Source of the DNA: Niabella agricola
Lineage (GTDB): Bacteria; Bacteroidota; Bacteroidia; Chitinophagales; Chitinophagaceae
Direction: 5' to 3'
DNA: 64,000 bases
Assembly: GCF_021538615.1 (NCBI RefSeq)
Contig: NZ_JAJHIZ010000003.1
Location: 4,030,001-4,094,000, forward strand
The notes beneath the pieces were generated by a model, which did no database searches, was not told the DNA's origin, and saw only the letters and a program-made list of their open reading frames with translations. This document shows, one piece after another, positions 14,299 to 54,675 of this stretch. Made by a program: the position numbers and the translations under genes. Within the stretch, counting starts at the first letter, position 1, and the number at the start of each line of letters is the position of its first letter.

Positions 14299-14347
14299 GA
14301 TGTTAGATACCCGATACCGGACGCCAGACACCAGACATCAGATATTG
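14299..14347. repeat. Heptad array, GAYRYYA class, seven units
   Basis: Seven contiguous 7-mers each starting GA (positions 14299, 14306, 14313, 14320, 14327, 14334, 14341). Third base is T or C; examples are GATACCC and GACACCA. Lies inside composite copy B. Confidence 0.8.
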
Positions 14348-14400
14348 GTTTCTATGTCTATAGAATATCGATCGGAGAAAGTTCTTGGAGGCAGCAACAA

Positions 14401-14440
14401 CATCTCCATTTTCACATTCCCAAATTTTCAGATTCCGAAG
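14401..14440. repeat. Octad array, five units
   Basis: Five 8-mers in register such as TTTTCACA (14409), TTCCCAAA (14417) and TTTTCAGA (14425); same class as 12268-12315. Confidence 0.7.
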
Positions 14441-14570
14441 CAGGAACGGCATTTTACTTCTACATTTAATATTCTAATTCGATATTTTACATTCCCAAAG
14501 GGTACCGGTATTTGATTTTTGTCTTTTGAATCTTGTCTTTTCGAAGAATGGATTATTGAATGGCAATGGA

Positions 14571-14602
14571 ATCTTCATTCCCACATTCCCTGATTTTCAA
14601 AT
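14571..14602. repeat. Octad array, four units
   Basis: Four 8-mers in register (TCCCACAT at 14579, TCCCTGAT at 14587) just downstream of the uvrC stop codon. Confidence 0.65.
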
Positions 14603-14612
14603 TTGAAAGCGT

Positions 14613-16421
14613 TTAAGAGGCAAAATGATCGATCACCAGTTGTGCCTTTGCCTTGCCAATGACGGCAGCCAGTTCGTCCAGCGACCGTTCCCTGACATTT
14701 TTTACCGATCGGAATGTTTTTAACAGCTCCGCTGCGGTATTTTTCCCGATGCCTTTTATAGACTCCAGTTCGTTTTTAAACGTGCCCTTGCTTCTTTTTT
14801 GCCGGTGGAAAGTGATGCCAAAACGGTGCACCTGGTCGCGGATAAACCGGATCAGTTTCAGGCTGGGGCTGTTATAAGGCAGTTTCAGGGAGTCTTTGTC
14901 TCCGGCAAAAAAAATCTCTTCCACATTTTTTGCCAGTCCCACCAGGGTAATGCTTCCTTGCAATTCCAGTGCTTCAATGGCTTCCAGTGCGGCACTCAGT
15001 TGTCCTTTTCCGCCGTCAATGATCACCAACTGGGGCAATGGTTCGCCTTCCTCTGTAAGCCGCCGGTAGCGACGATAAACGGCCTCCTTCATGCTGGCGA
15101 AATCATTGATGCCTTCCACCGTTTTTACGTTAAAATGGCGGTAGTCTTTTTTACTCGGTACCCCGTTTTTAAAACAAACCATAGCCGATACCGGGTAGCT
15201 GCCCTGGAAATTCGAGTTATCAAAACATTCGATATGCACGGGAAGTTCCTGGAGCTGCAGATCGATCTGTAACTGCTCCAGTACTTTTACATGATCTACA
15301 TTGCGGTTGATCTTGATGCGTTCTTTATTCTTTAATTCTTCAATGAAATAGCCGGCATTCTTTTCTGAAAGCTCCAGCAGTTTTTTGCGGTCTCCGGCCT
15401 TGGGCACTACAATTTCAACATCGGCCTCCGGGTAATCGATCTCAAAAGGTACTACAATCTCCGGCACATGGCTGTTGAAGGTCATGCGCAGCTGGCTGAT
15501 GGCATATACCAGTATTTCTTCCACCGGTTCGTCCAGGTGGGTTTCCAGCTTGTTGGTTTGCGTTTGCACCACGGTTCCGTTCCGGATCATCAGGTAGTTG
15601 ACATAGGCGATCGATTGGTCTTTAATGATGGAGAACACATCTTTGTCGCCGCCTTTGATACCGGTGATTACCGATTTAGACTGATAATAATCTTCGAGGT
15701 ACTCAATCTTTTTACGCACCTGCTCTGCTTTTTCAAACTCCAGGGCTTCGGCATGAGTCCTCATTTCTTCTTTGAAATGACGGATCACCGGCCGAAGATT
15801 GCCTTTCAGCAGGTCGCGGATCTGCCCGATGTTTTCATCATAATCTGCCCGGGTTTGCAATCCTTCGCAGGGACCTTTACAATTACCAAGGTGGTATTCC
15901 AGGCAAACCTTAAATTTCCCTTTTTCGATATTTTTCTGGGCGAGGTTGAGGCTGCAGGTACGCATGGGGATGGTGCGTTTGATAAACTCCAGCAGTTCCC
16001 GCACCTTAAAAACAGAAGTATAGGGGCCCAGGTATTCCGATCCGTCATCTACCGGTTGCCGCGTAAGGTAAATGCGCGGAAAGGGTTCGTTTTTAATCAC
16101 GATATAAGGGTAGGATTTACTATCCTTCAGATTGATGTTGTACTTGGGCTGAAACTGTTTGATCAGCGAGTTTTCCAGGAAGAAGGCATCCGGCTCACTG
16201 TTTACAATCGTAAACTCCAGGTGATGGATGCGCTGTACCAGCTCATGCGTTTTATAATTGGTAAAGGTTTTATTAAAGTAGGAGCTTACCCGTTTGCGCA
16301 GATCCTTTGCCTTACCTACATAGAGGATTTTCCCGGTTTCATCAAAGTATTTATAGATGCCCGGCTGGTGCGGAATCGTGGATGCAATATTTGAAAACTG
16401 TTCCTGTGTCAATTGCTGCAA
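14613..16421 (-). CDS. uvrC: UvrABC excinuclease subunit C
   Basis: A 602-residue nucleotide-excision-repair nuclease. The N-terminal GIY-YIG domain (residues ~15-95) has PGIYKYFDETGKILYVGKAKDLRKRV. A UVR motif lies near 205-240 (ALEFEKAEQVRKKIEYLEDYY), the UvrC RNase H-like domain follows (ECFDNSNFQGSYPV and VIIDGGKGQLSAA carry its acidic residues), and two C-terminal helix-hairpin-helix motifs end the protein (IKGIGKNTAAELL). It makes the incisions on both sides of a UvrB-bound lesion. No ATG or GTG occurs between the upstream in-frame TAA and the conserved N-terminus, so initiation is most likely at TTG 16421, 19 nt after a TAATTTTG promoter box. Single gene on the minus strand. Confidence 0.96.
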   Translation of the reverse strand: MQQLTQEQFSNIASTIPHQPGIYKYFDETGKILYVGKAKDLRKRVSSYFNKTFTNYKTHELVQRIHHLEFTIVNSEPDAFFLENSLIKQFQPKYNINLKDSKSYPYIVIKNEPFPRIYLTRQPVDDGSEYLGPYTSVFKVRELLEFIKRTIPMRTCSLNLAQKNIEKGKFKVCLEYHLGNCKGPCEGLQTRADYDENIGQIRDLLKGNLRPVIRHFKEEMRTHAEALEFEKAEQVRKKIEYLEDYYQSKSVITGIKGGDKDVFSIIKDQSIAYVNYLMIRNGTVVQTQTNKLETHLDEPVEEILVYAISQLRMTFNSHVPEIVVPFEIDYPEADVEIVVPKAGDRKKLLELSEKNAGYFIEELKNKERIKINRNVDHVKVLEQLQIDLQLQELPVHIECFDNSNFQGSYPVSAMVCFKNGVPSKKDYRHFNVKTVEGINDFASMKEAVYRRYRRLTEEGEPLPQLVIIDGGKGQLSAALEAIEALELQGSITLVGLAKNVEEIFFAGDKDSLKLPYNSPSLKLIRFIRDQVHRFGITFHRQKRSKGTFKNELESIKGIGKNTAAELLKTFRSVKNVRERSLDELAAVIGKAKAQLVIDHFAS

Positions 16422-16440
16422 AAGGGTGTTTAGAAACGTA

Positions 16441-16448
16441 CAAAATTA
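16441..16448 (-). promoter_or_regulatory. -7 box TAATTTTG of uvrC
   Basis: Exact TAnnTTTG on the minus strand, 19 nt before the TTG start codon, supporting that start. Confidence 0.5.
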
Positions 16449-16494
16449 ACCGGTAAATGTTATTTTAAAAAAAATCGTTGAAAGTGACCTCTAA

Positions 16495-17025
16495 TTACGC
16501 GATTCGTTCTTGTAGGAAGGATCGAAATGCTGTTGCCTCCTGTTCAGTTTTTAATGTGTGTTTTGGAATAACAATGCCGCTGTTTACATGAACAAACAGG
16601 AAAAAGTACAAAGGGGTTTCCGCCAAGTATTCAAAAGCAGACCAACGTGTTTCCGATTTGGTGGAATCCGTTATTGTTACAAGTGTTTCGTCAAGAAATA
16701 TCAGGGTCCTGCTTCCTGTGAGATCTGTGTTTTTGCCTCTTTTGAGCAGCTTCTTCGCTTGTTTTTTTAAATACCATTGATCCAGCGGTTTTCGAAAAAT
16801 TAAGAGGCAGAGGATAAATAAAATAAACAGAAAATCGCTCCATTGATATCGATGAAAGTTGAATTTCTTAAATACCAGAACCAGGCCAATGCCAAATAAC
16901 AGAGGCCACCAGGTTTTTATAAACCTGTTTTTTCTGTGAACGGAGCTTTTCAGATAGTAATAGATGTACAAGGCTGCAAGGTCTTCTTCAGTTTGCTCGT
17001 AGGTTATTTGAAAACGGGGATTCAT
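16495..17025 (-). CDS. YcxB-like membrane protein
   Basis: A 176-residue protein with two adjacent membrane helices (about residues 32-50 and 56-75) followed by a cytosolic PH-like domain, the layout of YcxB-like proteins: ITYEQTEEDLAALYIYYYL at the N-terminus, and ETRWSAFEYLAETPLYFFLFV then GIVIPKHTL at the C-terminal domain. Function is not established for the family. A longer frame starts at ATG 17067, but that codon lies within the gpmI terminator hairpin (17058-17097), so ATG 17025 (MNPRFQITYEQ) is preferred. The gene lies 99 nt downstream of gpmI on the same strand, separated by that terminator. Confidence 0.72.
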   Translation of the reverse strand: MNPRFQITYEQTEEDLAALYIYYYLKSSVHRKNRFIKTWWPLLFGIGLVLVFKKFNFHRYQWSDFLFILFILCLLIFRKPLDQWYLKKQAKKLLKRGKNTDLTGSRTLIFLDETLVTITDSTKSETRWSAFEYLAETPLYFFLFVHVNSGIVIPKHTLKTEQEATAFRSFLQERIA

Positions 17026-17051
17026 TTTTATATAAGCTGTTAGTTGTAAAA

Positions 17052-17097
17052 TAAAAAGAGGCTGCATCAAAAGTCTTTATGTTTTTGATCCAGCCTC
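17052..17097 (-). terminator. Terminator of gpmI
   Basis: A 15-bp inverted repeat with a single mismatch (17058-17072 with 17083-17097), loop of 10 nt, followed on the minus strand by TTTTTAT. It begins 27 nt after the gpmI stop. Confidence 0.9.
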
Positions 17098-17123
17098 CTG
17101 AGCGATTTCCGGCTGCATTTAAT

Positions 17124-18659
17124 TTATACGTCTTCCACCAGTATATCACCGGTCATCTCCTTCGGTATCGGCAATTTCATAAATGTAAGGATGGTTGGTG
17201 CAATATCGCCCAGTTTGCCTTCTTTTATTGTTCCCTTCCAGTTATTGTCGATAATGAACAGGGGCACAGGATTCATACTGTGCGCAGTATTGGGTGTACC
17301 GTCTTCATTGATCAGGTAATCGGAATTGCCATGATCAGCGGTGAGGAAGATCACATAATCCTGTTTCAGCGCTTCGGTTACGATCTGTTCCACGCATTGA
17401 TCCACGGTTTCCACGGCTTTTACGGCAGCTGAAAACACGCCGGTATGTCCCACCATATCGGCGTTTGCAAAATTCAGGCAAATAAAATCGGCTGTTTTAT
17501 TATGAATTTCCGGAAGAATGGCTTCGGTAAGTTCCCGGGCGCTCATTTCCGGCTGCAGGTCATAAGTGGCTACCTTGGGTGAAGGCTTTAAGATCCGGCT
17601 TTCTCCTTCAAAAGGTTTTTCACGCCCGCCGCTGAAAAAGAAGGTCACGTGCGGGTATTTCTCCGTTTCAGCAATGCGGATCTGCTTCAGATGGTTGGCC
17701 TCAATTACTTCACCGATGGTTTGGGTAAGGTCTTCATTACGGAACAGTACATGGACATTTTTAAACGTATGATCGTAAACCGTCATTGTGGTATAGTCCA
17801 GGTCCAGCGTGTGCATGTGTTGCTCCGGATGATCCTGCTGGGTCAGTACCTCGGTAATCTCCCGGCAACGGTCTGTACGGAAGTTGAAGCAAAGTACCAC
17901 ATCTCCGTTTTTGATTGTGGCTACCGGCTGATTTTCTGCGTTGATAATAACAGTAGGCTTTATGAACTCGTCTGTAATGTTGTTGGCATAACTGTTTTGA
18001 ATCGCTTCAATGGCTGATGCAGCGGTCTCGCCTTTACCGTTGACCATTGCTTCGTAAGCCAGCGCCACGCGCTCCCAGCGTTTATCCCGGTCCATGGCAT
18101 AATAACGACCGTCTACAGTTGCAATTTGACCCACACCGGTCTGGTTCAGGTGTTGCTGAAGATCCTCAATAAATCCAAGCCCGCTTTTGGGATCAGTATC
18201 TCTTCCATCTGTAAACGCATGAATATATACCTCTTGCAGGTCATTGTCCTTACAAATGTTTATTAGTGCCTTAAGATGGTTGATATGTGAATGCACGCCA
18301 CCATCGCTTACCAGCCCTAACAGGTGTAAGGGCTTATGGTTGTCCCTGGCGTGCGAAAGTGCACGCAGCAATTCACTATTTGCTGCCAGCTCACCGGTTT
18401 TAATGGCTACATTGATCCGCTGAAGCTCCTGATACACAATACGTCCGGCGCCAAGGTTAAGGTGGCCTACCTCGGAATTGCCCATCTGTCCTTCCGGCAG
18501 CCCTACCAATTCTCCAAACGTAGTAAGCGTGGTATTGGGATATTTGCTGTATAAAGATCTGGTAAAAGGCACGTTAGCATTCTGGATGGCATCTGCGGAT
18601 GCAACTTTCCCGAGTCCCCAGCCGTCCATTATTAGTAAAATCGCTCTTTTTTGTGACAT
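17124..18659 (-). CDS. gpmI: 2,3-bisphosphoglycerate-independent phosphoglycerate mutase
   Basis: A 511-residue cofactor-independent phosphoglycerate mutase that interconverts 3- and 2-phosphoglycerate in glycolysis. Metal-ligand D12 is in LLIMDGWG, and the phosphoserine nucleophile is S62 in QMGNSEVGHLNLGAGR. Downstream markers are HSHINHL, FTDGRDT, DGRYYAMDRDKRWER, FFFSGGREKPFEGESR, NFANADMVGHTG and the C-terminal TADHGNSD with AHSMNPVP. All are in the expected order and length, so the enzyme should be active with two Mn2+ ions. It starts at a clear ATG and ends at a strong terminator. Confidence 0.97.
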   Translation of the reverse strand: MSQKRAILLIMDGWGLGKVASADAIQNANVPFTRSLYSKYPNTTLTTFGELVGLPEGQMGNSEVGHLNLGAGRIVYQELQRINVAIKTGELAANSELLRALSHARDNHKPLHLLGLVSDGGVHSHINHLKALINICKDNDLQEVYIHAFTDGRDTDPKSGLGFIEDLQQHLNQTGVGQIATVDGRYYAMDRDKRWERVALAYEAMVNGKGETAASAIEAIQNSYANNITDEFIKPTVIINAENQPVATIKNGDVVLCFNFRTDRCREITEVLTQQDHPEQHMHTLDLDYTTMTVYDHTFKNVHVLFRNEDLTQTIGEVIEANHLKQIRIAETEKYPHVTFFFSGGREKPFEGESRILKPSPKVATYDLQPEMSARELTEAILPEIHNKTADFICLNFANADMVGHTGVFSAAVKAVETVDQCVEQIVTEALKQDYVIFLTADHGNSDYLINEDGTPNTAHSMNPVPLFIIDNNWKGTIKEGKLGDIAPTILTFMKLPIPKEMTGDILVEDV

Positions 18660-18858
18660 TGAACTTGCTTTTAGTTAAAAATTAGCGGCTGCGAAATCAG
18701 AAGTATAAGAGTTTGCAGCCAAAGCAGTAAAATTAAAAAGAATGTTTGAAGAATAGACGACAAAAAAGGGGTCTGTTTACACACATTTTCATGAAAGGGT
18801 GACGAAGCAGGTTTTTTTAATATATTCGTACCACCTAGAACAACGGATCATAACAAAA

Positions 18859-19263: not shown

Positions 19264-19291
19264 AGAATTCTGCGAAAATTTAGTGATAAAA

Positions 19292-19323
19292 CGGCCTCTC
19301 CTAATGAGAGGCTGTTTATTTTT
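19292..19323 (+). terminator. Terminator of the DUF4783 gene
   Basis: GCCTCTC (19294-19300) and GAGAGGC (19306-19312) pair around a 5-nt loop, followed by TGTTTATTTTTA. It ends 7 nt before the nadC ATG, so nadC may depend on read-through or on a promoter overlapping this hairpin. Confidence 0.8.
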
Positions 19324-19329
19324 ACAGTC

Positions 19330-20187: not shown

Positions 20188-20230
20188 GTTTCAGGTTGGA
20201 TGCGTATCCTGCGAAAAGATCTGAAACAGT

Positions 20231-20258
20231 ATTCAGCAGTTAGCTATCGGCCATTAGC
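20231..20258. repeat. Heptad array, NNTNRGC class, four units
   Basis: Four 7-mers in register (ATTCAGC, AGTTAGC, TATCGGC, CATTAGC at 20231, 20238, 20245, 20252), each ending GC, in the nadC-SUI1 spacer. Confidence 0.6.
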
Positions 20259-20294
20259 CAGGAGTAGCGTATAAACATCCAATTTTAACCGGAA

Positions 20295-20329
20295 ACTCAA
20301 CTTGAAACGTTGAACCTGAAACCTTAAAC
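20295..20329. repeat. Heptad array, YTGAAAC class, five units
   Basis: Five 7-mers in register, each ending AAC (units begin at 20295, 20302, 20309, 20316, 20323), e.g. TTGAAAC and CTGAAAC. Complementary in sense to the RGTTTMA array at 12189. The last unit ends 6 nt before the next ATG. Confidence 0.75.
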
Positions 20330-20335
20330 AAAAAA

Positions 20336-20680
20336 ATGGCAAAGAATAAATCAGATCAGCATGGGTTTGTATACAGTACCAACCCCGATTTTAAATTTGA
20401 GCAGGATGCCGGTAATCAGGAGACCCTGCCGCCAGCCCAGCAGCGGCTGCGCATACAGTTGGAAACCAAACACCGGGGTGGAAAAACGGCCAGCGTCATT
20501 CTTGGATTTGCCGGAACGGATGAGGATTTGCAGGACCTGGCAAAGAAACTGAAATCATTTTGCGGAACAGGCGGCAATGCCAAAGACGGCGAGATCATCA
20601 TCCAGGGCGATCACCGGGATAAGTTGCTTCAATGGTTCCAGAAAAATGGCTACACCCAGGTGAAAAAGAGTGGCGGGTAG
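20336..20680 (+). CDS. Translation initiation factor SUI1/eIF1-like (YciH family)
   Basis: A 114-residue protein whose C-terminal ~85 residues are a SUI1 domain: LRIQLETKHRGGKTASVILGFAGTDEDLQDLAKKLKSFCGTGGNAKDGEIIIQGDHRDKLLQWFQKNGY. The basic TKHRGGK loop and the GTGG..DGEIIIQGD segment are the domain hallmarks. Bacterial members (YciH) are proposed to affect initiation fidelity, like eIF1. The start ATG follows a YTGAAAC heptad array by 6 nt, so that array is inside or immediately before its leader. Confidence 0.92.
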   Translation: MAKNKSDQHGFVYSTNPDFKFEQDAGNQETLPPAQQRLRIQLETKHRGGKTASVILGFAGTDEDLQDLAKKLKSFCGTGGNAKDGEIIIQGDHRDKLLQWFQKNGYTQVKKSGG

Positions 20681-20765
20681 CGGATTATCAAGCTGTAACG
20701 GCATCTTCACTTTTACATTCCGCTCCGTTTTTATGCTTTATGTGAGGCATTCAATTTTAGCCCCC

Positions 20766-20910
20766 GGATACTAGGTGCGAGATGCCAGACGCCAGATATT
20801 AGATGGTTATCGCTTATAGAATATCGACGGGAGAAAGATTACGGAGCAGGAACGGCATCAACACTTTTACATTTAATATTTTTTATTGGTCATTTTTCAT
20901 TCCCCACGGG
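20766..20910. repeat. Composite intergenic repeat, copy C (short)
   Basis: About 145 bp with the same module order as copy B: heptads, TTATAGAATATCGACGG, GGAGCAGGAACGGCATC, CTTTTACATTTAATATT, ATTGGTCATTTTTCATTCCC. It ends 5 nt before the stop end of the rhodanese gene. Confidence 0.75.
20767..20808. repeat. Heptad array, GAYRYYA class, six units
   Basis: Six 7-mers beginning at 20767, 20774, 20781, 20788, 20795 and 20802, five of them starting GA (e.g. GATGCCA and GACGCCA). Confidence 0.75.
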
Positions 20911-20914
20911 CATC

Positions 20915-21508
20915 TTACCGTTTCGACATTAACGTAACACCAGCTGGTGACGATTCCGGAGTATCAACCTCCGTTCCTTCAAATTTCAGCCGGGGGTCAT
21001 TGATGTTTACGAGTTCTGCAAGTTCATACACATTCCGGTATCCATATCCGTACAAATTGATATAGGTGGGGATGTTTAATGCCAGCGTAACCGGCTTGTT
21101 CTTTTTGAAAGCGGCTGTGGGCACAACAGCCTTTGTGGCAAAGTTTTGCTGATCGCCATCAAAATTGTTATTGCAGTAGATCAGCACTTTTGTGTCAAAT
21201 GCCGGGATCACTTTTGAAAGATTCGCCTGTGTAAAATCTGCAAAATTCAAATGAAGGGCTCCCTTAATATGTTTGCGGTTGTACATTTCATCAGAGCGGG
21301 TATCCAGGATTACAGTACCGGTTTCACCTGCCAGCCTTAAAAAAACATCCAGGGCAACCAGCCGTTTTTTCCGGTGCTGTTTTACTTCTTTTACCAGCTG
21401 CGCAAAGACGTCATAATCTACTTTTGCCTTTGGAACAGCGGATTGTGCATACAGTGTACCGGAGATCAGGAAGGGGCAGATAAGAAGCAATAAGCGGCCT
21501 GATTTCAT
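20915..21508 (-). CDS. Secreted rhodanese-like domain protein
   Basis: A 197-residue protein with an N-terminal signal peptide (MKSGRLLLLICPFLISGTLYAQ) and one rhodanese domain over residues ~60-165. ILDTRSDEMYNRKHIKGALHLNF is the CH2A-like region, and the active-site loop is YCNNNFDGDQQNFA with the expected Cys (near residue 113). The loop differs from the CRxGxR of thiosulfate sulfurtransferases, so sulfur transfer from thiosulfate is doubtful; a redox or binding role in the periplasm is possible. It is encoded alone, with the divergent-type terminator at 21622 separating it from the M16 peptidase. Confidence 0.82.
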   Translation of the reverse strand: MKSGRLLLLICPFLISGTLYAQSAVPKAKVDYDVFAQLVKEVKQHRKKRLVALDVFLRLAGETGTVILDTRSDEMYNRKHIKGALHLNFADFTQANLSKVIPAFDTKVLIYCNNNFDGDQQNFATKAVVPTAAFKKNKPVTLALNIPTYINLYGYGYRNVYELAELVNINDPRLKFEGTEVDTPESSPAGVTLMSKR

Positions 21509-26532: not shown

Positions 26533-26558
26533 CTTGACGGGGTTAAATCTTGAAGTGA

Positions 26559-26593
26559 ATGGTTAATGATCAATAGTGAAGGCTTATGGGTGA
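26559..26593. repeat. Heptad array, ATnnTnA class, five units
   Basis: Five 7-mers in register (ATGGTTA, ATGATCA, ATAGTGA, AGGCTTA, TGGGTGA) in the spacer between the 3-helix membrane protein and the esterase. Confidence 0.65.
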
Positions 26594-26611
26594 TCTGGTT
26601 CCGGTAAATCG

Positions 26612-29091: not shown

Positions 29092-29106
29092 GCTTCAAAA
29101 TTTCCG

Positions 29107-29114
29107 CAAAGATA
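29107..29114 (-). promoter_or_regulatory. -7 box TATCTTTG of aspS
   Basis: Exact TAnnTTTG on the minus strand, 15 nt before the ATG. No TTG at -33 spacing. Confidence 0.5.
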
Positions 29115-29126
29115 AGGGCTGAGGCG

Positions 29127-29155
29127 AGGTTTATAGGTTTAAAGTTCAAAGTTTC
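29127..29155. repeat. Heptad array, RGTTTMA class, three to four units
   Basis: AGGTTTA at 29127, then after one extra base AGGTTTA (29135), AAGTTCA (29142) and AAGTTTC (29149) in register. Same class as 12189-12230. Confidence 0.6.
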
Positions 29156-29255
29156 ATTCCCCGGAGCTGGTCTTTGGATAGGGTTTATGTTTAAAGTTAA
29201 TTCCAGATCAGCGCCGTTTTCTACTTGATGTGAGCTCCCGGCTTCCGGTTCTTAT

Positions 29256-29276
29256 AGCTGAAAGCTAAAAGTGGAA
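29256..29276. repeat. Heptad array, AGCTNAA class, three units
   Basis: AGCTGAA (29256), AGCTAAA (29263) and AGTGGAA (29270), in register. Related words occur at 61884. Confidence 0.55.
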
Positions 29277-29306
29277 GGCCGGCCGCTCAATACTGCCGGA
29301 AATCAG

Positions 29307-29314
29307 TAGGTTTG
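29307..29314 (+). promoter_or_regulatory. -7 box TAGGTTTG of deoC
   Basis: Exact TAnnTTTG ending 18 nt before ATG 29333. It overlaps the TTG at 29312 that opens a longer frame, which excludes that frame's start. Confidence 0.5.
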
Positions 29315-29332
29315 CACTCTAAAACAAGAGCA

Positions 29333-39035: not shown

Positions 39036-39521
39036 CTAAAGTGTTTTCAGCATCCAGATATTGCAACCGCTATGGCCGGAGTTTCCCAACGGATGGTTCA
39101 GCTTCCGGAATCCCATTTTTTCATACATTCCAATGGCAGTAGCGAACTGGGGCAGGCTTTCGAGATATATTTCTTTGTAATCCAGGGCGGATGCAGATTC
39201 CAGGCACTTGAGGAATAATGCCTTTCCAACACCCTTGCCCCTTGCAGTACCTGAAAGGTAAAATTTTACCAGCTCAGCGCAGCCTTCCGGCAATCCCTCG
39301 GTGGGATAAATACCGCAGCAACCCAGCAGGTCATTATCCTGCTCGGCTACCCATAGCAATGCTTTTGGGGTTTGAAAAAGTTCGAAGAGACGGTCAGTGG
39401 TAGGATCTTCAAAAACCGTATTTTTTGTTGGAGCGTTAAACTCCTGGAATGCCGTGCGAATAATGGAGGCGAGTTTACTGTTATCCCGCGCTTCAACCTG
39501 CCTGATCGTAACTGTGCTCAT
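39036..39521 (-). CDS. GNAT-family N-acetyltransferase
   Basis: A 161-residue GNAT protein: VTIRQVEARDNSKLASIIRTAF at the N-terminus, the central LLGCCGIYPTEGLPEGCAELVKFYLSGTARGKGVGKALF with the R/G-x-x-G-x-G/A acetyl-CoA loop (ARGKGVGKAL), and ATAIGMYEKMGFRKLNHPL. The substrate is unknown. The frame can be extended 14 codons upstream, but ATG 39521 (MSTVTIRQ) lies 4 nt after a TACCTTTG box, so initiation upstream of it would be untranscribed from that promoter. A composite repeat begins immediately behind the promoter. Confidence 0.9.
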   Translation of the reverse strand: MSTVTIRQVEARDNSKLASIIRTAFQEFNAPTKNTVFEDPTTDRLFELFQTPKALLWVAEQDNDLLGCCGIYPTEGLPEGCAELVKFYLSGTARGKGVGKALFLKCLESASALDYKEIYLESLPQFATAIGMYEKMGFRKLNHPLGNSGHSGCNIWMLKTL

Positions 39522-39525
39522 ACTG

Positions 39526-39533
39526 CAAAGGTA
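39526..39533 (-). promoter_or_regulatory. -7 box TACCTTTG of the GNAT gene at 39036
   Basis: Exact TAnnTTTG on the minus strand, 4 nt before ATG 39521; implies a leaderless mRNA. Confidence 0.45.
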
Positions 39534-39537
39534 TCGT

Positions 39538-39691
39538 CCCTTGCGGGAATTTAAAATAACCAATGAGAAATATTAAATGTAAAAGGAGATGATGCCGGTC
39601 CTGCTCCGCGATCCTTCTCCGGCTATAGACGACAGCCGTCTAATATCTGGTGTCTGGTATCTCGTATCTAGCATCTAAAATCTAATGCCTT
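39538..39691. repeat. Composite intergenic repeat, copy E (short, inverted)
   Basis: About 154 bp matching copy C in reverse orientation: GGGAATTTAAAATAACCAATGAG, AATATTAAATGTAAAAGG, GATGCCGGTCCTGCTCCG, GGCTATAGACGA and then a heptad array. It abuts the promoter of the GNAT gene. Confidence 0.75.
39634..39689. repeat. Heptad array, GAYRYYA class (complement), eight units
   Basis: Eight 7-mers in register from 39634; the first seven end TC on the plus strand (e.g. TGGTGTC and TGGTATC), the complement of the GA-start class at 14299 and 20767; the last ends CC. Confidence 0.8.
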
Positions 39692-39832
39692 ACAGCAAAT
39701 ATAAAAACGGATCTAAGCGTACCGATGAGAAGCCCGGCCTTAAATCTCTTATATTGGGATGTAAACAACCAATGGAAAGTAAGATTCCTTTACGGCCCCG
39801 TGATCTTTCTTTCAAATAAAATGCACTCCTGC

Positions 39833-48053: not shown

Positions 48054-48058
48054 TGGCG

Positions 48059-48089
48059 TCCCTTGTGGTTAGCATTAAACCGCAAGGGA
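48059..48089 (+). terminator. Hairpin after the VOC gene
   Basis: TCCCTTG and GGTT pair with AACC and CAAGGGA around a TA-rich loop (one mismatch), starting 6 nt after the stop; a weak TCTTTT tail follows. Part of the sequence is shared with 27121-27145. Confidence 0.45.
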
Positions 48090-48165
48090 AGGTCTTTTCG
48101 CAATGCCCGCCAAGTACTCGATCCCCTGTTGCAATTTTTGCCTTGCGTTTTAACTCAGCCGCTCA

Positions 48166-48564
48166 TTAAAGGAATTTTGCCCGTAGCCGATCTGTGGGAC
48201 GCATGCAATGATCGGCGCTGCCAAACCAGCGGTACCGGTTATGTGCAACCCAGTTGTACAGCCGGTCGCGGATCACTGCCGGAACCAACATGAGCACATA
48301 AACCAATGGCCATAATCTGTTTAGCCTTCGTGCAATCCTTAGTGCTGCTGTAGAGCTGAGGTGCGCCTTCCCATTTTCGATCAGCACCACAGAGCCATAT
48401 GTTTGCGGAATGCCGTATTGCCGGGTGAGTTGTAAGCCTGCAGGAGATTGCAGCGCCGCAAAACGGAACCGGCCCTTCGGATCATGTTTTATGATAAACA
48501 TCACCGACCGGTTGCATAAATTACATACGCCATCAAATAATATGACGGATTCTTCCGCCTGCAT
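48166..48564 (-). CDS. DCC1-like thiol-disulfide oxidoreductase family protein (DUF393)
   Basis: A 132-residue DUF393 protein named for the DxxCxxC motif: here ILFDGVCNLCNRSVMFIIKHDPKGRFRFAALQS contains D11-G-V-C-N-L-C. The rest (YGIPQTYGSVVLIENGKAHLSSTAALRIARRL, then a hydrophobic PLVYVLMLVPAVIRDRLYNWVAHNRYRWFG) is typical. It may reduce or oxidise thiols of an unknown partner. The start is 1 nt after the stop of the upstream lipoprotein gene, so the two form an operon. Confidence 0.9.
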   Translation of the reverse strand: MQAEESVILFDGVCNLCNRSVMFIIKHDPKGRFRFAALQSPAGLQLTRQYGIPQTYGSVVLIENGKAHLSSTAALRIARRLNRLWPLVYVLMLVPAVIRDRLYNWVAHNRYRWFGSADHCMRPTDRLRAKFL

Positions 48565-48565
48565 G

Positions 48566-49008: not shown

Positions 49009-49104
49009 CAACCTATACTTCGTCTTGGATAAATTATATGTTGTCTATGATAAATTTGTGCGCTTTTATAGCCTGTCAATTCACGTTTTTACCCTTTGTC
49101 AGTA

Positions 49105-50424
49105 TCACATATTGGGCAGTTTCCATCCATTTTGATAAACCGGCTTTACCAGTTGTGTGGCGGCAGGGCTATTAAACTGGTTTCTGGTTTGATCCCAATA
49201 GATCTTTTGTCCGGTACGCACCGCAATATTTCCCATATGACTGGCAATAGCCACGGTAGCGGCTGCTTCCACGGGGCAATGGAGATCTGCTTTCTGCCGG
49301 GATTTTACCACATCAATGAAGTTTGCTGTATGCAGGTTTAATCCGTTGTCCACCGATTTTGTCCAGGCTACAGCAGCAATTTTATCTTTCTCCGGCCGTA
49401 CCTCCCATCCGCCCCGGTTCAGAAGCAGGGTTCCGTTTTCACCGATAAAGGCAATGCCGTGCTGCATATTATACAGTCCTACCCCGGTTGCCAGGTTGTG
49501 TTCCCAGCTCATCTGGAAGGAGCCAAAATCGTATAAGGTGGTTTGGAGATCCGGTGTTTCGCGGGCATCATCCGGGAAAACAAATTTGCCACCTGTTGCC
49601 ATTACCGATTTGGGTGCTTCCGCTTTCATGCCCATCAGCACCATATCGATCAGGTGTACCCCCCAGTCGGTCATCAGGCCGCCTGCATAATCCCAAAACC
49701 AGCGAAACTCATAATGGAAGCGGTTTTTATTAAACGGACGCTTCTTGGCAGGACCCAGCCACATGGTATAATCAACACCTGCCGGCACGGGACTATTGGG
49801 CACTACGGGTAGGGGTGTGGATCCCCCACGGTACATCCAGGTTTTGGTAGCAGCAATGCGGCCCAGTTTTCCAGACTGCACATAGGCAATGGCATCTTTA
49901 AAATGCTGCTGGCTTCGCTGCCATTGACCCACCTGCACCATGCGGTTGTATCTTGCGGCGGCTTTTACCATCAACTGTACTTCAAAAATGGAATTGGCCA
50001 GCGGCTTTTCGCAGTACACATCCTTGCCGGCCGCGCAGGCATCAATCATCTGCAAACAATGCCAGTGGTCCGGCGTACCCACAATCACTACATCCACATC
50101 CTTATTTTGTAAGAGCTTCCGGTAATCCTTATATATCGTTGGTTTTAGCGGGCTGATTTTTTCAAGATCTGCAAGCCGTTGCCGGATAATGCTATCGTCT
50201 ATATCACAAAGCGCTACGCATTGGGTTTCCGGAACCTTTAGCATCGAAGAAAGATCGGACCATCCCATCCCTTTAACACCGATTACACCAATACCAATCT
50301 TGTCATTGGGAGATACTGCTTTTTTAACCGCCGCTAACAGCTCCAGCGGAACCATGGCTCCCAGGCCCGCTGCAACTGCAGCCAATCCGGTATTCCGGAT
50401 AAAAACTCTTCTGTTTGTACTCAT
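49105..50424 (-). CDS. Tat-exported Gfo/Idh/MocA oxidoreductase
   Basis: A 439-residue NAD(P)-dependent dehydrogenase. A twin-arginine signal (TNRRVFIRNTGLAAVAAG) leads to a Rossmann domain (KIGIGVIGVKGMGWSDLSSML, with VDVVIVGTPDHWHCLQMIDACAAGKDVYCEKPLANS carrying the EKP catalytic Lys) and the C-terminal alpha/beta domain (FRWFWDYAGGLMTDWGVHLIDMVL). Such exported members oxidise or rearrange sugars, often on 3-keto-glycosides, in the periplasm with pre-bound cofactor. A longer frame to 50469 is rejected because ATG 50424 places the RR motif at the normal position. It is divergent from a double DUF1080 gene, a common functional partner. Confidence 0.92.
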   Translation of the reverse strand: MSTNRRVFIRNTGLAAVAAGLGAMVPLELLAAVKKAVSPNDKIGIGVIGVKGMGWSDLSSMLKVPETQCVALCDIDDSIIRQRLADLEKISPLKPTIYKDYRKLLQNKDVDVVIVGTPDHWHCLQMIDACAAGKDVYCEKPLANSIFEVQLMVKAAARYNRMVQVGQWQRSQQHFKDAIAYVQSGKLGRIAATKTWMYRGGSTPLPVVPNSPVPAGVDYTMWLGPAKKRPFNKNRFHYEFRWFWDYAGGLMTDWGVHLIDMVLMGMKAEAPKSVMATGGKFVFPDDARETPDLQTTLYDFGSFQMSWEHNLATGVGLYNMQHGIAFIGENGTLLLNRGGWEVRPEKDKIAAVAWTKSVDNGLNLHTANFIDVVKSRQKADLHCPVEAAATVAIASHMGNIAVRTGQKIYWDQTRNQFNSPAATQLVKPVYQNGWKLPNM

Positions 50425-50490
50425 CTGGCAATTGTTATATGAATTGTAATATTGACGAATATAGGGCATTTCTCAAAAAGCTATTTACGA

Positions 50491-50500
50491 AAACGTTTGA
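50491..50500. promoter_or_regulatory. LacI-type operator-like AAACGTTTGA between divergent genes
   Basis: AAACGTTTGA between the divergently transcribed oxidoreductase and DUF1080 genes, identical to the 10-mer at 38803-38812. The AAACGTTT core is a perfect palindrome with a central CG. Confidence 0.4.
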
Positions 50501-50566
50501 ATAGTTAATTTCTGTTGTTTAGCGGAAAGCTGGTAATTTAGCCGGTATTCTTTTAAAACAAAGGCA

Positions 50567-51922
50567 ATGAAAAAAATAATGATGCTTGCCGGAACTGCCC
50601 TGCTGGTACTGGCTGCCGCTGCCCAGGGCTCCGGGTGGAAAAATCTTTTCAACGGCAGGGATTTTACCGGCTGGAAGCAACTGAATGGCAAGGCGAAATA
50701 TACCGTGGAGCATGGAGAAATTGTTGGAACTACGGTGTATGGGCAGCCCAACTCTTTTATGGTAACCGAACAGGATTATGGTGATTTTATCCTCGAGCTG
50801 GAGTTTAAAGTAGACAGCACGATGAACTCCGGTGTGCAATTCCGCAGTGAAAGTAAGCCGGAATACAATAACGGTCGCGTGCATGGTTACCAGTTTGAGA
50901 TCGATCCCTCGCCCCGGGCCTGGTCTGGCGGTATTTATGATGAGGCGCGGCGCGATTGGCTGTATCCGCTGGATTTGAACCCCGTTGCCAAAAAAGCATT
51001 TCGTCAGGGGCAATGGAACCGTATAAAACTGGAATGCATCGGTAATAATATACGCACCTGGCTAAACGGGGTTCCCTGTGCATACCTGGTGGATGATCTT
51101 ACACCCAGGGGTTTTATAGCCCTGCAGGTACATGGTATCGGTAATAAAAAGGATGAAGGACGGCAGATCCGCTGGCGGAATATCCGCATCCGGACCTCCG
51201 GTCTGAAACCCGCTCCGCTCGATGGAACCTTTGTGGTGAATATGATCCCGAACAATCTGTCTGCTGCAGAAAAGAAAAACGGCTTCCGGTTATTGTTTGA
51301 TGGTAACACCACAACAGGATGGAGAGGTGCTTACAAACCGGCATTCCCGTCCAAGGGCTGGACTATAAATAACGGCGTGTTAACGGTACAGTCTTCTCAG
51401 GGAAAAGAATCGGCGAACGGCGGCGACATTGTAACTCAAAAAGAATACAGTGCCTTTATCTTTGAGTTTGATTTTAAACTGACAAAAGGGGCCAACAGTG
51501 GCGTGAAATATTTTGTAACAGAAAGCGAAAAAAATTCTGGTTCTGCAATAGGGCTGGAGTACCAGATCCTGGACGATGCCGTGCATCCGGATGCCAAGAT
51601 GGGGCGCGACGGAAACCGTACACTGGCTTCGCTGTACGATCTCATCACATCCAACCGCGAAAAGCGTGCACGCAAACCGATCGGGGAGTGGAACAAGGGC
51701 ATGGTGATCGTATATCCCAACAATAAAGTAGAACATTGGCTGAACGGCTGGAAAATGGTAGAATATCAACGGGGCTCTCCGGAGTTCTTAAAATTAGTAG
51801 CCATCAGCAAGTATAAAAACTGGCCCAATTTCGGTATGGCGCCTAAAGGACATTTGCTGTTGCAGGATCATGGCGATGAAGTGTCTTACCGTTCCTTAAA
51901 GATCAAAGAACTGAAACAATAA
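50567..51922 (+). CDS. Exported protein with two DUF1080 (3-keto-disaccharide hydrolase) domains
   Basis: A 451-residue exported protein (signal [20 protein letters not shown]). Two copies of the concanavalin-like DUF1080 domain are present: about residues 22-215 ([46 protein letters not shown]) and 235-450 ([67 protein letters not shown]). The family includes enzymes cleaving 3-keto-glycosides formed by sugar 3-dehydrogenases. The divergent Gfo/Idh gene could supply or use keto-sugars. A LacI-type palindrome lies between the two and a strong terminator follows. Confidence 0.9.
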
Positions 51923-51947
51923 AACTAAAAAAGAACGATGATTGGAG

Positions 51948-51980
51948 AAAGAGCAACCCGTAGCGGTTGCTCTTTTTTTT
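51948..51980 (+). terminator. Terminator of the DUF1080 gene
   Basis: AAAGAGCAACC (51948-51958) pairs with GGTTGCTCTTT (51965-51975) around CGTAGC, followed by further T. Confidence 0.93.
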
Positions 51981-52098
51981 AGAAACCAGCGGCTCATCTC
52001 CAGGGATTTGAAAATAAAAATTTAAGACTATTTCCCTTCCTTTTCTGCCCGAAAATGCTTATATTTCCCGCAAACCACAAAGCACGTAATACACATAT

Positions 52099-54369
52099 AT
52101 GGGGCATTTACCAAAATTGATCGAAGACCTGGCACTCATACTGATGGCGGGTGCCATCGTAACTTTATTGTTTCGGAAAATAAAGCAACCGCTGGTGCTG
52201 GGCTATATCATTGCTGGTTTTTTGGTGAGTCCGCATTTTATTTTTACACCCAATGTGGTCGACCAGGAGAATGTGAAAACGCTGGCGGAGATCGGTGTGA
52301 TCTTTTTGTTGTTTAGCCTGGGTCTGGAGTTCAGCTTTAAAAAACTCGTGCGGGTGGGAGGCACTGCATCCATTACGGCTTTTACCGAGATTATCTTTAT
52401 TACCGTGGGCGGCTATTTTGCAGGGAAACTCATGGGTTGGAGTACCATGGACAGCCTGTTCCTGGGCGGCATGCTGGCCAGTTCTTCCACCACTATTATC
52501 CTGCGGGCCTTTGATGAACTGGGAGTGAAGACCAAGCAGTTCGCCCGGATCGTTTTTGGTGTACTGGTAGTGGAAGACATTGTTGTGATCCTGCTGATGG
52601 TATTGCTTTCCACCGTGGCGGTTACCAAGAATTTTGAAGGCGGGCAAATTCTTTTTACCGTTTTAAAGCTTTTGTTTTTCCTGGGGATGTGGTTTATTGT
52701 AGGCATCTTTTTGTTGCCGACCTTTTTACGGGTTGCCCGTAAACTGCTGGATGAGGAGACCCTGCTGATACTGGCGCTAGGGCTTTGTCTGGCCATGGTG
52801 GTGCTGGCTACGCAGGTAGGTTTTTCGGCAGAGTTGGGCGCCTTTGTAATGGGGTCTATCATAGCAGAAACTACGCTGGCAGAAAAGGTTGAGCACCTGA
52901 TCAAGCCCGTTAAGGACCTGTTTGGTGCGGTGTTTTTTGTTTCCGTTGGCATGATGATCGATCCCAAAGCCATTGCTGCCTATGCCGGCCCCATCTGCTG
53001 GATCACATTGCTGACGCTGTTCGGCAAAATGATCAGTACCACTATCGGAGCGCTGATCTCGGGGCAACCCCTAAAGCAATCGGTACAGGTAGGAATGAGT
53101 ATGGCGCAGATCGGTGAGTTTGCCTTTATCGTGGCCACCCTGGGACTCTCATTGGGAGTGATCTCGGAGTTCCTTTTCCCCATCGCGGTAGGCGCTTCTG
53201 CCATCACTACTTTTACAACCCCCTACCTGATCAAGTTTTCGGAACCGATCTACAATCGCCTGGTAAAAGTACTTCCCGGTAAATGGGTTCATAAACTAAA
53301 CCGGTATTCTTCCAGCACCCAGCAGATACAGGCAGAGAGCGACTGGAAGGTCGTGTTAAAAACCTATCTCCGGATTCTTGTAACGAATACGATCATCCTG
53401 GTGGCCGTACTATTGGTGAGTAAAAATTTCCTGCAACCCTTTATTGATGAACGGGTGCAGCACAGTTACCTGCGCAACGGCATTCTGTTAGTGGTTTCGC
53501 TGGCTGCTGCCGCTCCCTTTTTCTGGGCCTTTATGGCCGGAAAGCCCAAGAACCAGGCGTATAAAGAATTATGGGTAGATAAAAAATACAACCGTGGCCC
53601 CCTGTTTATAGTGGAACTGCTGCGGGTAACTATGGGGATTTTATTTATGGCCATATTCGTAAATACACTGGTGCCGGCACGGATCGCATTGCTGGTGGGC
53701 ATTCCCATTACGATACTGGTTTTAATATTATTCTCCAACAGGATCCAGAAGTTTTACCAGCGGATGGAAAAGCGGTTTATGCACAATCTGAACGAACGTG
53801 AACTTGAGGCGGCAGCGGCCCATATGGTTGAACATAATCTGAAGGAAAAAAATAATGAAATGCGTTCAGGAATGGAAGCCTGGGATGCGCATATTGTGGA
53901 AATGGAAGTAAATCCACAGGCCAAGGCGATTGGTATTTTATTAAAAGACCTGCAATGGCGGGAAAAATTCGGAATCAATATCGTATACATCAAGCGGGGT
54001 GATGAGATTATTCATACACCCGGCCGGAACAACCGCCTGCTTCCGTTTGACCGGGTAGGAATCCTGATCACCGATGACCAACTCGCCGTATTTAAACCGA
54101 TTTTTGATACTCGGGAGGTATTGGAGGATGAGGCTATAAGCATTGAGGATATTGTACTTCAGAAAGTGTTGGTGGATGAGCATACCAAGCTGAGGGGGCA
54201 AACCATACATGGCTCCGGGCTCCGGGAACGGACCAACGGACTGATCGTTGGGATCGAGAAGGAAAAGGGACGGATCCTGAATCCCGAATCATCTACCGTG
54301 CTGGAATGGGGGGATATTATCTGGATCGTAGGCGACCGGAAGAAATTACAAAAGCTGATATTGGAATAA
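52099..54369 (+). CDS. CPA2 cation:proton antiporter (KefB/YbaL type) with TrkA-C domain
   Basis: A 756-residue inner-membrane antiporter. Residues ~1-380 form the Na+/H+ exchanger fold (PLVLGYIIAGFLVSP, GLEFSFKKL, SSTTIILRAFDELGVKTKQFARIVFGVLVVEDIVVILLMVLLS with the VEDI acidic pair, QVGFSAELGAFVMGSII). A second hydrophobic stretch (about 425-560) is followed by a soluble tail and a C-terminal TrkA-C domain (about 670-756: LVDEHTKLRGQTIHGSGLRERTNGLIVGIEKEKG). There is no TrkA-N nucleotide-binding domain, so it is not a full Kef channel. Likely substrate K+ or Na+. An octad array begins at its stop codon. TATATTTC 31 nt upstream is a near -7 box. Confidence 0.92.
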   Translation: MGHLPKLIEDLALILMAGAIVTLLFRKIKQPLVLGYIIAGFLVSPHFIFTPNVVDQENVKTLAEIGVIFLLFSLGLEFSFKKLVRVGGTASITAFTEIIFITVGGYFAGKLMGWSTMDSLFLGGMLASSSTTIILRAFDELGVKTKQFARIVFGVLVVEDIVVILLMVLLSTVAVTKNFEGGQILFTVLKLLFFLGMWFIVGIFLLPTFLRVARKLLDEETLLILALGLCLAMVVLATQVGFSAELGAFVMGSIIAETTLAEKVEHLIKPVKDLFGAVFFVSVGMMIDPKAIAAYAGPICWITLLTLFGKMISTTIGALISGQPLKQSVQVGMSMAQIGEFAFIVATLGLSLGVISEFLFPIAVGASAITTFTTPYLIKFSEPIYNRLVKVLPGKWVHKLNRYSSSTQQIQAESDWKVVLKTYLRILVTNTIILVAVLLVSKNFLQPFIDERVQHSYLRNGILLVVSLAAAAPFFWAFMAGKPKNQAYKELWVDKKYNRGPLFIVELLRVTMGILFMAIFVNTLVPARIALLVGIPITILVLILFSNRIQKFYQRMEKRFMHNLNERELEAAAAHMVEHNLKEKNNEMRSGMEAWDAHIVEMEVNPQAKAIGILLKDLQWREKFGINIVYIKRGDEIIHTPGRNNRLLPFDRVGILITDDQLAVFKPIFDTREVLEDEAISIEDIVLQKVLVDEHTKLRGQTIHGSGLRERTNGLIVGIEKEKGRILNPESSTVLEWGDIIWIVGDRKKLQKLILE

Positions 54370-54399
54370 TTTGAAAATGTGCGCATGTGAGAATGAAGA
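54368..54399. repeat. Octad array, AATRTGRA class, four units
   Basis: AATTTGAA (54368), AATGTGCG (54376), CATGTGAG (54384), AATGAAGA (54392), in register, beginning inside the antiporter stop codon. Confidence 0.7.
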
Positions 54400-54538
54400 T
54401 TCCGTTGCGGTTCGATCATCCATCTTTCGGAAAGACAAGATTCAAAAGACAAAAAACACATACCGGTCCCCGCTTGGGAATATAAAATATCGAATTGGAA
54501 ATATTAAATGTAGAAGTGAAATGCCGTTCCTGCTTCGG

Positions 54539-54578
54539 AATTTGAAAATTTGAGAATGCGGAAATGTGAAAATGGAGA
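54539..54578. repeat. Octad array, AATRTGRA class, five units
   Basis: AATTTGAA (54539), AATTTGAG (54547), AATGCGGA (54555), AATGTGAA (54563), AATGGAGA (54571): five 8-mers each starting AAT. Confidence 0.8.
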
Positions 54579-54633
54579 TGCCGTTCCTGCTCCGTAAATC
54601 ACCGCCGATCGATATGCTATAGACAATAGACAC

Positions 54634-54675
54634 TAATATCTGACATCTGATGTCTGATATCTGGTATCTCATATC
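54634..54675. repeat. Heptad array, GAYRYYA class (complement), six units
   Basis: Six 7-mers ending TC at 54640, 54647, 54654, 54661, 54668 and 54675 (e.g. TGACATC, TGATGTC, TGGTATC). Confidence 0.8.

What the first reader, a model, noticed from the sequence alone, without database searches (positions are those of the whole stretch)
14299..54675. Degenerate heptad (7-nt period) arrays in at least ten intergenic spacers
Many spacers contain runs of three to eight units locked to a 7-nt period, although the units themselves vary and fall into several classes. GAYRYYA: 14299-14347, 20767-20808, 39634-39689, 54634-54675. RGTTTMA/YTGAAAC: 12189-12230, 20295-20329, 29127-29155. ATnnTnA: 26559-26593. 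AGCTNAA or related: 20231-20258, 29256-29276, 61849-61897. The conserved feature is period and register, not sequence, and no array lies inside a gene. This is unlike CRISPR (no spacers), REP (no palindrome) or coding repeats. The closest named analogue is the heptanucleotide STRR sequences of cyanobacteria. Possible roles: binding sites for a modular or helically arranged protein, RNA elements in 5'/3' UTRs, or products of a slippage or templated-synthesis mechanism.
Basis: seen in the sequence. Interest (0 to 1): 0.75.

Follow-up and report, generated by a model that had tools for sequence, protein, structure and literature searches.

The report
Seven-letter DNA repeats edging genes
The gaps between genes in this Niabella bacterium carry many worn arrays of a seven-letter DNA repeat that tend to keep their place and direction beside genes while their letters change, and between genes that face each other they tend to occur where the usual stop-transcription hairpins are missing.

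Summary
In 384 kb of this Niabella genome, intergenic DNA is autocorrelated at lags 7, 14 and 21, with 60 local period-7 stretches against 3.35 in shuffles. Ten of 11 listed arrays beat their shuffled spacers at P<0.05. They are degenerate relatives of known bacterial heptanucleotide repeats. Neighbouring units are more alike than distant ones (z -9.3), so arrays grow by 7-nt tandem duplication.

(2) Arrays keep their spacer at 85% identity (both species 26, one only 12, neither 105), though class is mostly lost. (3) Convergent 3' ends with arrays rarely have an intrinsic terminator: 2 of 37 against 71 of 144.

Best reading: slippage-born repeats kept as hairpin-free, strand-polar transcript boundaries. 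Origin is well supported, function inferred. Outside Chitinophagales polarity was not significant; tandem spacers show no terminator deficit per nucleotide.

The parts
12189..12230 (+). class C array (AGTTTCA/GGTTTCA), divergent spacer 12175-12339
   Evidence: lag-7 22/35, P<0.001; shared with N. pedocola and BIN29
14299..14347 (+). class A array (GAYRYYA), convergent spacer 14253-14612
   Evidence: 29/42, P<0.001
20231..20258 (+). weak class B array, tandem spacer 20188-20335
   Evidence: 12/21, P=0.10, not significant alone; N. pedocola has a clear class B array in this spacer
20295..20329 (-). class C array just upstream of the start at 20336
   Evidence: 17/28, P=0.003
20767..20808 (+). 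class A array, convergent spacer 20681-20914
   Evidence: 22/35, P=0.001
26559..26593 (+). class D array (ATGGTTA), tandem spacer 26533-26611
   Evidence: 16/28, P=0.006; below the threshold
29127..29155 (+). class C array, divergent spacer 29092-29332; period mixed 7/8
   Evidence: 13/22, P=0.043, lag 8 higher
29256..29276 (-). class B array (AGCTGAA on +), same spacer
   Evidence: 10/14, P=0.047
39634..39689 (-). class A array in mid-spacer 39522-39832 (tandem); its direction is inward relative to the nearer edge
   Evidence: 32/49, P<0.001
54634..54675 (-). class A array, convergent spacer 54370-54831
   Evidence: 27/35, P<0.001; N. pedocola has class E arrays from both sides here
61849..61897 (+). 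class B array beginning 5 nt after a stop, convergent spacer 61844-61905
   Evidence: 22/42, P<0.001
14437..14452 (+). hub of the dispersed composite element
   Evidence: 1 mismatch; HMM matches in this spacer
20843..20858 (+). hub of the dispersed composite element
   Evidence: exact; HMM matches in this spacer
39592..39607 (-). hub of the dispersed composite element
   Evidence: 1 mismatch; HMM match in this spacer
54521..54593 (-). two hubs (54521-54536 and 54578-54593) of the composite element
   Evidence: 1 and 0 mismatches; HMM matches in this spacer

Best explanation
These are degenerate heptanucleotide tandem arrays, the worn form of the heptamer repeats known in other bacteria. SHOWN by sequence analysis in Niabella: period 7, concentration in spacers and at gene edges, units most alike when adjacent, a shared TTTCAGN-like consensus, a bias for the T-rich strand to read outward from the nearest gene edge at both stops and starts, persistence in the same spacers between species while letters and class turn over, and near-absence of intrinsic terminators at convergent ends that carry an array. 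INFERRED: arrays arise by 7-nt tandem duplication (replication slippage or unequal exchange), decay by substitution and are re-extended before they vanish. They are kept at gene edges as hairpin-free, strand-polar elements that pause or stop transcripts leaving a gene: sense transcripts at 3' ends, antisense ones at 5' ends. Only a loose T-rich heptad pattern would be needed, so period and direction outlast sequence. How RNA polymerase or a partner would read it is unknown.
For: Lag-7/14/21 excess confined to spacers. Unit similarity falls from 0.763 for neighbours to 0.649 six apart, permuted 0.69-0.71, z -9.3, 57 arrays. Blind consensus TTTCAGA; outward 55 to 29 at stops, 48 to 15 at starts, 147 of 188 arrays clear; N. 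pedocola alone 34 to 14 and 20 to 5; with arrays that straddle edges 63 to 31 and 51 to 15. Two clear arrays in one spacer face the centre 19 times, face away 2 times, agree in direction 17 times. Arrays in both orthologous spacers 26, one species only 12, neither 105, p 3e-18. Same-end orthologous arrays agree in direction 22 to 7. Convergent ends with array: terminator 2 of 37, array-free 71 of 144; per kb of non-array sequence 0.33 against 2.49; 12 of 12 threshold settings agree. Density highest between convergent genes (1.42 and 1.84 per kb), lowest between divergent ones (0.70 and 0.41) in the two species. The same outward rule is published for unrelated heptamers.
Against: No transcript data. 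In tandem spacers terminator density per nt is the same with and without arrays (2.17 and 2.33 per kb). Polarity is a bias, not absolute, and is gone beyond 100 nt (5 to 7). It was not significant in non-Niabella uvrC loci (13 to 8), in three genomes of family f24 (7 to 6) or across the phylum (25 to 14 within 100 nt, p 0.11). Array ends are not C-rich, so classical Rho sites are not indicated. Persistence at the same spacer can be inertia. The array finder itself selects similar neighbours, though the decline continues from two to six units apart.
Confidence: 0.48

Rival explanations
1. Neutral heptanucleotide repeats. Slippage makes 7-nt arrays anywhere; those in genes are purged and those in spacers persist by inertia. 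Polarity arises only because the other direction harms translation starts or 3' ends. The arrays themselves do nothing.
For: Slippage-like unit similarity; rapid turnover of class; some arrays inside genes (52 of 260); heptamers described as the most abundant long repeats in most bacterial genomes, with polymerase slippage proposed (2007 survey as cited in PMC4679880 and PMC4692102; the survey itself was not read).
Against: A recurring consensus and direction bias at both stops and starts; terminator deficit at convergent array ends beyond loss of room.
Confidence: 0.3
2. Binding sites, in RNA or single-stranded DNA, for a protein with a 7-nt footprint such as a cold-shock or S1-like domain, one protein per heptad, acting on UTRs.
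For: T-rich units at 7-nt pitch at gene edges; a cold-shock protein is reported to bind heptamer direct repeats one protein per heptamer (passage of PMC4679880).
Against: No binding test; the direction at starts puts the T-rich strand antisense to the gene; class turnover argues against tight sequence recognition.
Confidence: 0.1
3. The arrays are parts of a dispersed mobile or once-mobile composite element that carried its heptads to many spacers.
For: Hub of 16 bases at 22 places within one mismatch, reversed-pattern control 0; profile with 25 matches in the sampled DNA, the strong ones in the own genome only.
Against: Only 18 of 92 own and 11 of 89 N. pedocola arrays lie in a spacer with a match; arrays of other classes occupy the same spacers in relatives. 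No transposase or target-site search was made.
Confidence: 0.08
4. Telomere-like or break-end addition: a templated enzyme adds T/G-rich heptads to both ends of a break in a spacer, which are then joined, giving arrays that face each other.
For: 19 to 2 excess of facing over back-to-back arrays; heptad-rich genomes each with a favoured unit, in G135 TTTAGGG.
Against: Units behave as local duplicates, not as copies of one template; polarity is lost beyond 100 nt from an edge; arms in one spacer rarely share a class; no enzyme was sought.
Confidence: 0.04

Closest known systems
GGGAATC / GGGGA(C/T)T heptamer repeats of Xanthomonas and Nostoc (Rehm et al. 2015, PMC4692102; abstract, passages, sections 13 and 14 seen)
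   Same: Intergenic heptad arrays near gene edges with one strand reading outward (non-coding strand upstream, coding strand downstream); 83% kept in the same gene context between two Xanthomonas species, with length changes.
   Different: Those have G-tracts and are explained by quadruplexes; Niabella units have no G-tract, and the doublet GGGAATCGGGAATC with up to 1 mismatch occurs 4 times in the genome against 2 for the reversed control. Class replacement at orthologous spacers was not described in the sections seen.
TAACTGA heptamer repeats of Beggiatoaceae, cyanobacteria and five Bacteroidetes (MacGregor 2015, PMC4679880; abstract, passages, sections 7 and 12 seen)
   Same: Intergenic heptads; 147 of 170 sets point toward a start codon, which is TCAGTTA outward; in Flexibacter litoralis 12 of 14, plus one reversed set just after a stop. 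The unit resembles class B.
   Different: There one exact heptamer dominates and its variants are rarely repeated; here units are degenerate and multi-class, and the exact doublet TAACTGATAACTGA occurs 0 times.
Long heptanucleotide simple sequence repeats / cyanobacterial STRR (known to me only as cited in the two papers, and by recall)
   Same: Tandem heptanucleotides, over-represented in spacers, slippage invoked (passages).
   Different: Those are near-identical units; here most arrays are degenerate (scan threshold 62% lag-7 identity; no own array with its edges exceeds 0.9), a TCTGATC array excepted in its core.

Membership tests
Long heptanucleotide simple sequence repeats (LSSR/STRR) | 7-nt head-to-tail units | tested here: met
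Long heptanucleotide simple sequence repeats (LSSR/STRR) | perfect or near-perfect unit identity | tested here: not met
   none of 92 own arrays (edges included) has mean lag-7 identity above 0.9; mean neighbour identity 0.705. Hence filed as a variant, not a member
Long heptanucleotide simple sequence repeats (LSSR/STRR) | intergenic concentration | tested here: met
   208 of 260 arrays intergenic or straddling an edge in 0.23 Mb of spacer, 52 in 1.50 Mb of genes
Long heptanucleotide simple sequence repeats (LSSR/STRR) | generation by slippage / tandem duplication | tested here: met
   indirect: similarity declines with unit separation; no mutation was observed
TAACTGA repeats | exact TAACTGA direct repeats | tested here: not met
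   0 doublets in the own genome
G-quadruplex heptamers (GGGAATC) | G-tract in each unit | tested here: not met
   4 doublets with one mismatch, control 2; consensus TTTCAGA
TAACTGA repeats and G-quadruplex heptamers | fixed strand outward from gene edges | tested here: met
   for Niabella; not significant in wider samples
Intrinsic terminators | stable hairpin followed by a T-run | tested here: not met
   2 of 37 convergent array ends
Rho-dependent terminators | C-over-G region downstream of the stop | tested here: not met
   mean maximal C minus G in 60 nt 1.08, against 3.6 and 3.27 in array-free ends
Known structured RNAs (Rfam) | match at gathering score | tested here: not met
   0 matches in the window
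CRISPR | repeats separated by unique spacers | tested here: not met
   direct reading of the 11 arrays
REP elements | palindromic unit with a RAYT transposase | not tested
   no transposase search was made

The most novel reading that the evidence does not exclude
Degenerate T-rich heptad arrays are a hairpin-free, strand-polar kind of transcription boundary that stands in for intrinsic terminators, and the outward rule seen separately in Xanthomonas, Nostoc, Beggiatoa and here is one general property of bacterial heptamer arrays, kept by period and direction rather than by sequence.
Probability: 0.25. Interest if true: 0.8.

Novelty: new variant of a known kind. Interest (0 to 1): 0.55.

Why it matters
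An excess of heptanucleotide repeats in bacterial spacers is known, but its cause and use are open, and the published repeats were explained one by one (quadruplexes, a translational regulator). A shared direction rule in arrays without G-tracts, place kept without letters kept, and a deficit of intrinsic terminators at convergent array ends give a common, testable reading. It also shows how non-coding DNA can keep a feature that alignment-based conservation would miss.

Tried and rejected
Stem-loop arms: in convergent and tandem spacers RNA folding is not stronger with arrays (convergent mean z -1.39 in 40 folds against -2.44 in 16; tandem -1.69 in 54 against -1.67 in 88). In divergent spacers it is stronger (-1.22 in 24 against -0.27 in 26; not followed up). 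Two arrays in one spacer rarely match as inverted copies of one class (3 of 29 and 1 of 23 pairs above the 95th percentile).

Classical Rho sites: no C-over-G region. All-frame stop-codon cassettes: considered from the unit sequences, not tested; dropped because polarity also holds at starts, where outward stops are antisense.

Transition-only variation of class A, a first impression: not claimed; the GAYRYYA pattern builds it in, and over the arrays tested transversions are common.

Gene-calling artefact for polarity: of the 52 genic arrays, 13 with clear strand lie nearest a start and 14 nearest a stop, too few to make the bias.

Reversed-pattern control of the phylum scan: not a clean control, since the reversed pattern also describes a heptad class; 133 of 395 is descriptive only.

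Three f24 genomes (300 kb): many A/T low-complexity arrays, uninformative consensus, no polarity (stops 9 to 6, starts 12 to 12). In one search, 14 of 51 were dropped as low-complexity and 24 as ambiguous; of the 85 uvrC-locus arrays 18 and 46; of the 42 arrays in six further genomes 10 and 14. One hub copy (L131) was dropped before the profile because its surroundings looked coding by eye.

Searches of papers for such arrays in Niabella, Chitinophaga or Bacteroidetes; apart from the TAACTGA paper none was seen in the listings. PMC4060949: one passage seen.
Full report
WHERE. The window lies at G000:C3:4030001-4094000 of a 6.26-Mb genome. Its uvrC is 98% identical to those of Niabella pedocola and Niabella sp. 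BIN29, so it is a Niabella (Chitinophagaceae).

IS IT REAL. A simple codon-bias gene caller leaves 50,067 nt in 243 spacers of 40 nt or more in 384 kb. Autocorrelation in spacers exceeds 60 dinucleotide shuffles at lag 7 (z 9.1), 14 (6.9) and 21 (6.6); coding DNA shows the 3-nt pattern. Lags 3 and 6 are also raised in spacers (z 11.9, 6.7); I did not follow this up. Counting local stretches, period 7 stands out: 60 against 3.35 shuffled; coding DNA has 14 in 333 kb. In 744 kb of own genome there are 92 arrays in 93,888 nt of spacer; in 880 kb of N. pedocola 89 in 117,296 nt.

ANATOMY. Reading the arrays gives recurring classes: A GAYRYYA, B GCTTTCA or GCTATCA, C GGTTTCA or GGTTTAA, E GATTTGA or GATTCCA, D ATGGTTA or ATGGTGA, and a period-8 relative AATTTGAA. 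An alignment of all arrays, free in strand and register and blind to genes, converges on TTTCAGA, with A and G at its centre the most conserved (0.73, 0.65). Within arrays the same G and A are the most constant positions (identity 0.80 and 0.73, the others 0.52 to 0.71).

HOW ARRAYS GROW. If units were drawn independently from a template, similarity would not depend on distance. It does: 0.763 for neighbours, 0.736 two apart, 0.649 six apart, against a flat 0.69 to 0.71 in permutations; slope z -9.3, 57 arrays with at least five interior units. The finder favours similar neighbours, but the decline goes on past them. This is the mark of local tandem duplication followed by substitution. A perfect run of TCTGATC in L033 and a perfect GACATCA run in relative G014 look like recent growth.

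DIRECTION. Class strings are found outward from gene edges more than inward, at stops and at starts (class D, which I had named on the other strand, runs the other way). With the blind consensus, 147 of 188 Niabella arrays have a clear strand: stops 55 outward and 29 inward (p 0.006), starts 48 and 15 (p 4e-5). The four spacer types lean the same way (convergent 32/12, divergent 14/4, tandem 27/12 and 30/16). The two species share many arrays, so N. pedocola alone is also given: 34/14 and 20/5. The bias lies within 100 nt of an edge; beyond that it is 5/7. Counting arrays that straddle edges gives starts 51/15 and stops 63/31. Two clear arrays in one spacer face the centre 19 times, face away 2 times and agree 17 times; 63 clear single-array spacers give 43/20. 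Beyond Niabella the picture is weaker. Stretches of six genomes (four of the same genus, one other of the family, one of another family; most chosen because they hold class A) give 15/3, 18 of 42 arrays usable; non-Niabella uvrC loci 13/8 (21 of 85 usable); three f24 genomes 7/6 (13 of 51 usable). Loci from 30 genomes across the phylum, with extra loci from four of them, give 25/14 within 100 nt (p 0.11) and 29/19 in all, with one more in a gene.

PUBLISHED ARRAYS FOLLOW THE SAME RULE. In Xanthomonas and Nostoc most G-rich heptamers near genes lie within 50 bp upstream on the non-coding strand or downstream on the coding strand (PMC4692102 section 13). In a Beggiatoa relative 147 of 170 TAACTGA sets point toward a start codon and 12 toward a stop codon (PMC4679880 Table 1); in Flexibacter litoralis 12 of 14 point toward a start and one lies reversed just after a stop. 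These are outward in the sense used here. A quadruplex explanation cannot cover the present arrays, which lack G-tracts.

EVOLUTION. In 143 orthologous spacers between the own genome and N. pedocola (282 ortholog pairs, median 85% identity), arrays are in both in 26, own only 10, N. pedocola only 2, neither 105 (Fisher p 3e-18). The association is seen in each of three length bins. Same-end pairs agree in direction 22 to 7, but only 11 of 36 pairs are more alike in class than the 95th percentile of random pairs. Spacer 54370-54831 has class A here and class E from both sides in N. pedocola; spacer 39522-39832 has A here and C there. Array spacers differ more in length (relative difference 0.32 against 0.08, p 0.012; p 0.058 for spacers of 100 nt or more). 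Conservation of place with changing length is also published for Xanthomonas (83% kept); replacement of class is what is added here.

TERMINATORS. Scanning 250 nt downstream of stops for a hairpin of -8 kcal/mol or better followed by a T-run: convergent ends with an array within 60 nt 2 of 37, convergent ends of array-free spacers 71 of 144. Per kb of non-array sequence this is 0.33 against 2.49, so lack of room does not explain it. Tandem ends: 12 of 45 against 177 of 391, but equal per kb (2.17 against 2.33). A first scan of 120 nt gave 1 of 37 against 63 of 161 and 6 of 45 against 147 of 415. At convergent ends all 12 threshold settings agree in direction (p 1.4e-8 to 1.6e-3); per spacer 5 of 27 against 49 of 72 (p 1e-5). 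Array ends are not C-rich. Array density is highest between convergent and lowest between divergent genes in both species.

COMPOSITE ELEMENT. The four GAYRYYA arrays of the list are embedded in a dispersed, apparently non-coding element of about 200 bp with hub GGAGCAGGAACGGCAT (22 places within one mismatch, reversed-pattern control 0; one of them looks genic). A profile of 21 copies gives 25 matches, some of them pieces of one copy: 13 in the own sample, 11 in N. pedocola, 1 in G015; the strong ones (45 bits or more) are in the own genome only. 18 of 92 own arrays and 11 of 89 N. pedocola arrays lie in such spacers. It explains the recurrence of class A here, not the arrays in general.

DISTRIBUTION. 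GAYRYYA triplets: 18 overlapping matches at 10 places in the own genome, control 0, and matches in 15 of 59 relatives (in G006 the control also matches). TYAGNNT triplets: 133 of 395 genomes of the phylum (the control is not clean), with favoured units such as TCAGGTT, TCAGAAT, TCAGGGT and TTAGGGT in different genomes.

CONCLUSION. Origin as degenerate heptanucleotide repeats made by tandem duplication is well supported. A role as polar, hairpin-free transcript boundaries is the reading that best joins direction, place and terminator deficit, but no transcript was seen; a neutral reading, with direction set by selection against the wrong strand, remains close behind.

Noticed in passing
window 14262-14569, 20672-20936, 39490-39729, 54411-54849; L124-L145: Dispersed composite repeat of about 200 bp with hub GGAGCAGGAACGGCAT, holding inverted class A arms; strong copies only in the own genome among the samples searched. 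Mobility was not tested.
   Followed up: partly
window 54539-54574: Period-8 array of AATTTGAA/AATGTGAA type, a relative of the heptads; period-8 windows are mildly over-represented, 10 against 4.3.
   Followed up: no
L033:5690-5790: Perfect run of about 14 TCTGATC units in an own-genome spacer, probably a recent expansion.
   Followed up: no
G135, G059, G441, G168, G170, G344 (L246, L257, L263, L264, L269, L275): Other Bacteroidota each have a favoured heptad; in G135 it is the telomere-like TTTAGGG (likeness recalled).
   Followed up: partly
G005 spacer orthologous to window 48054-48565: Long direct repeats with a unit near GCGCAAAGGACCCGCGAAGAACGCAA fill a 1.2-kb spacer in relative G005.
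   Followed up: no
spacers upstream of starts in the sampled Niabella genomes: Strand-biased 6-mers TATCTT, TACCTT and CTTTGC on the sense strand fit the Bacteroidota -7 box TAnnTTTG (box recalled).
   Followed up: no
divergent spacers of own genome and N. pedocola: Divergent spacers with arrays fold more strongly as RNA (mean z -1.22, 24 folds) than array-free ones (-0.27, 26 folds), the reverse of convergent spacers.
   Followed up: no
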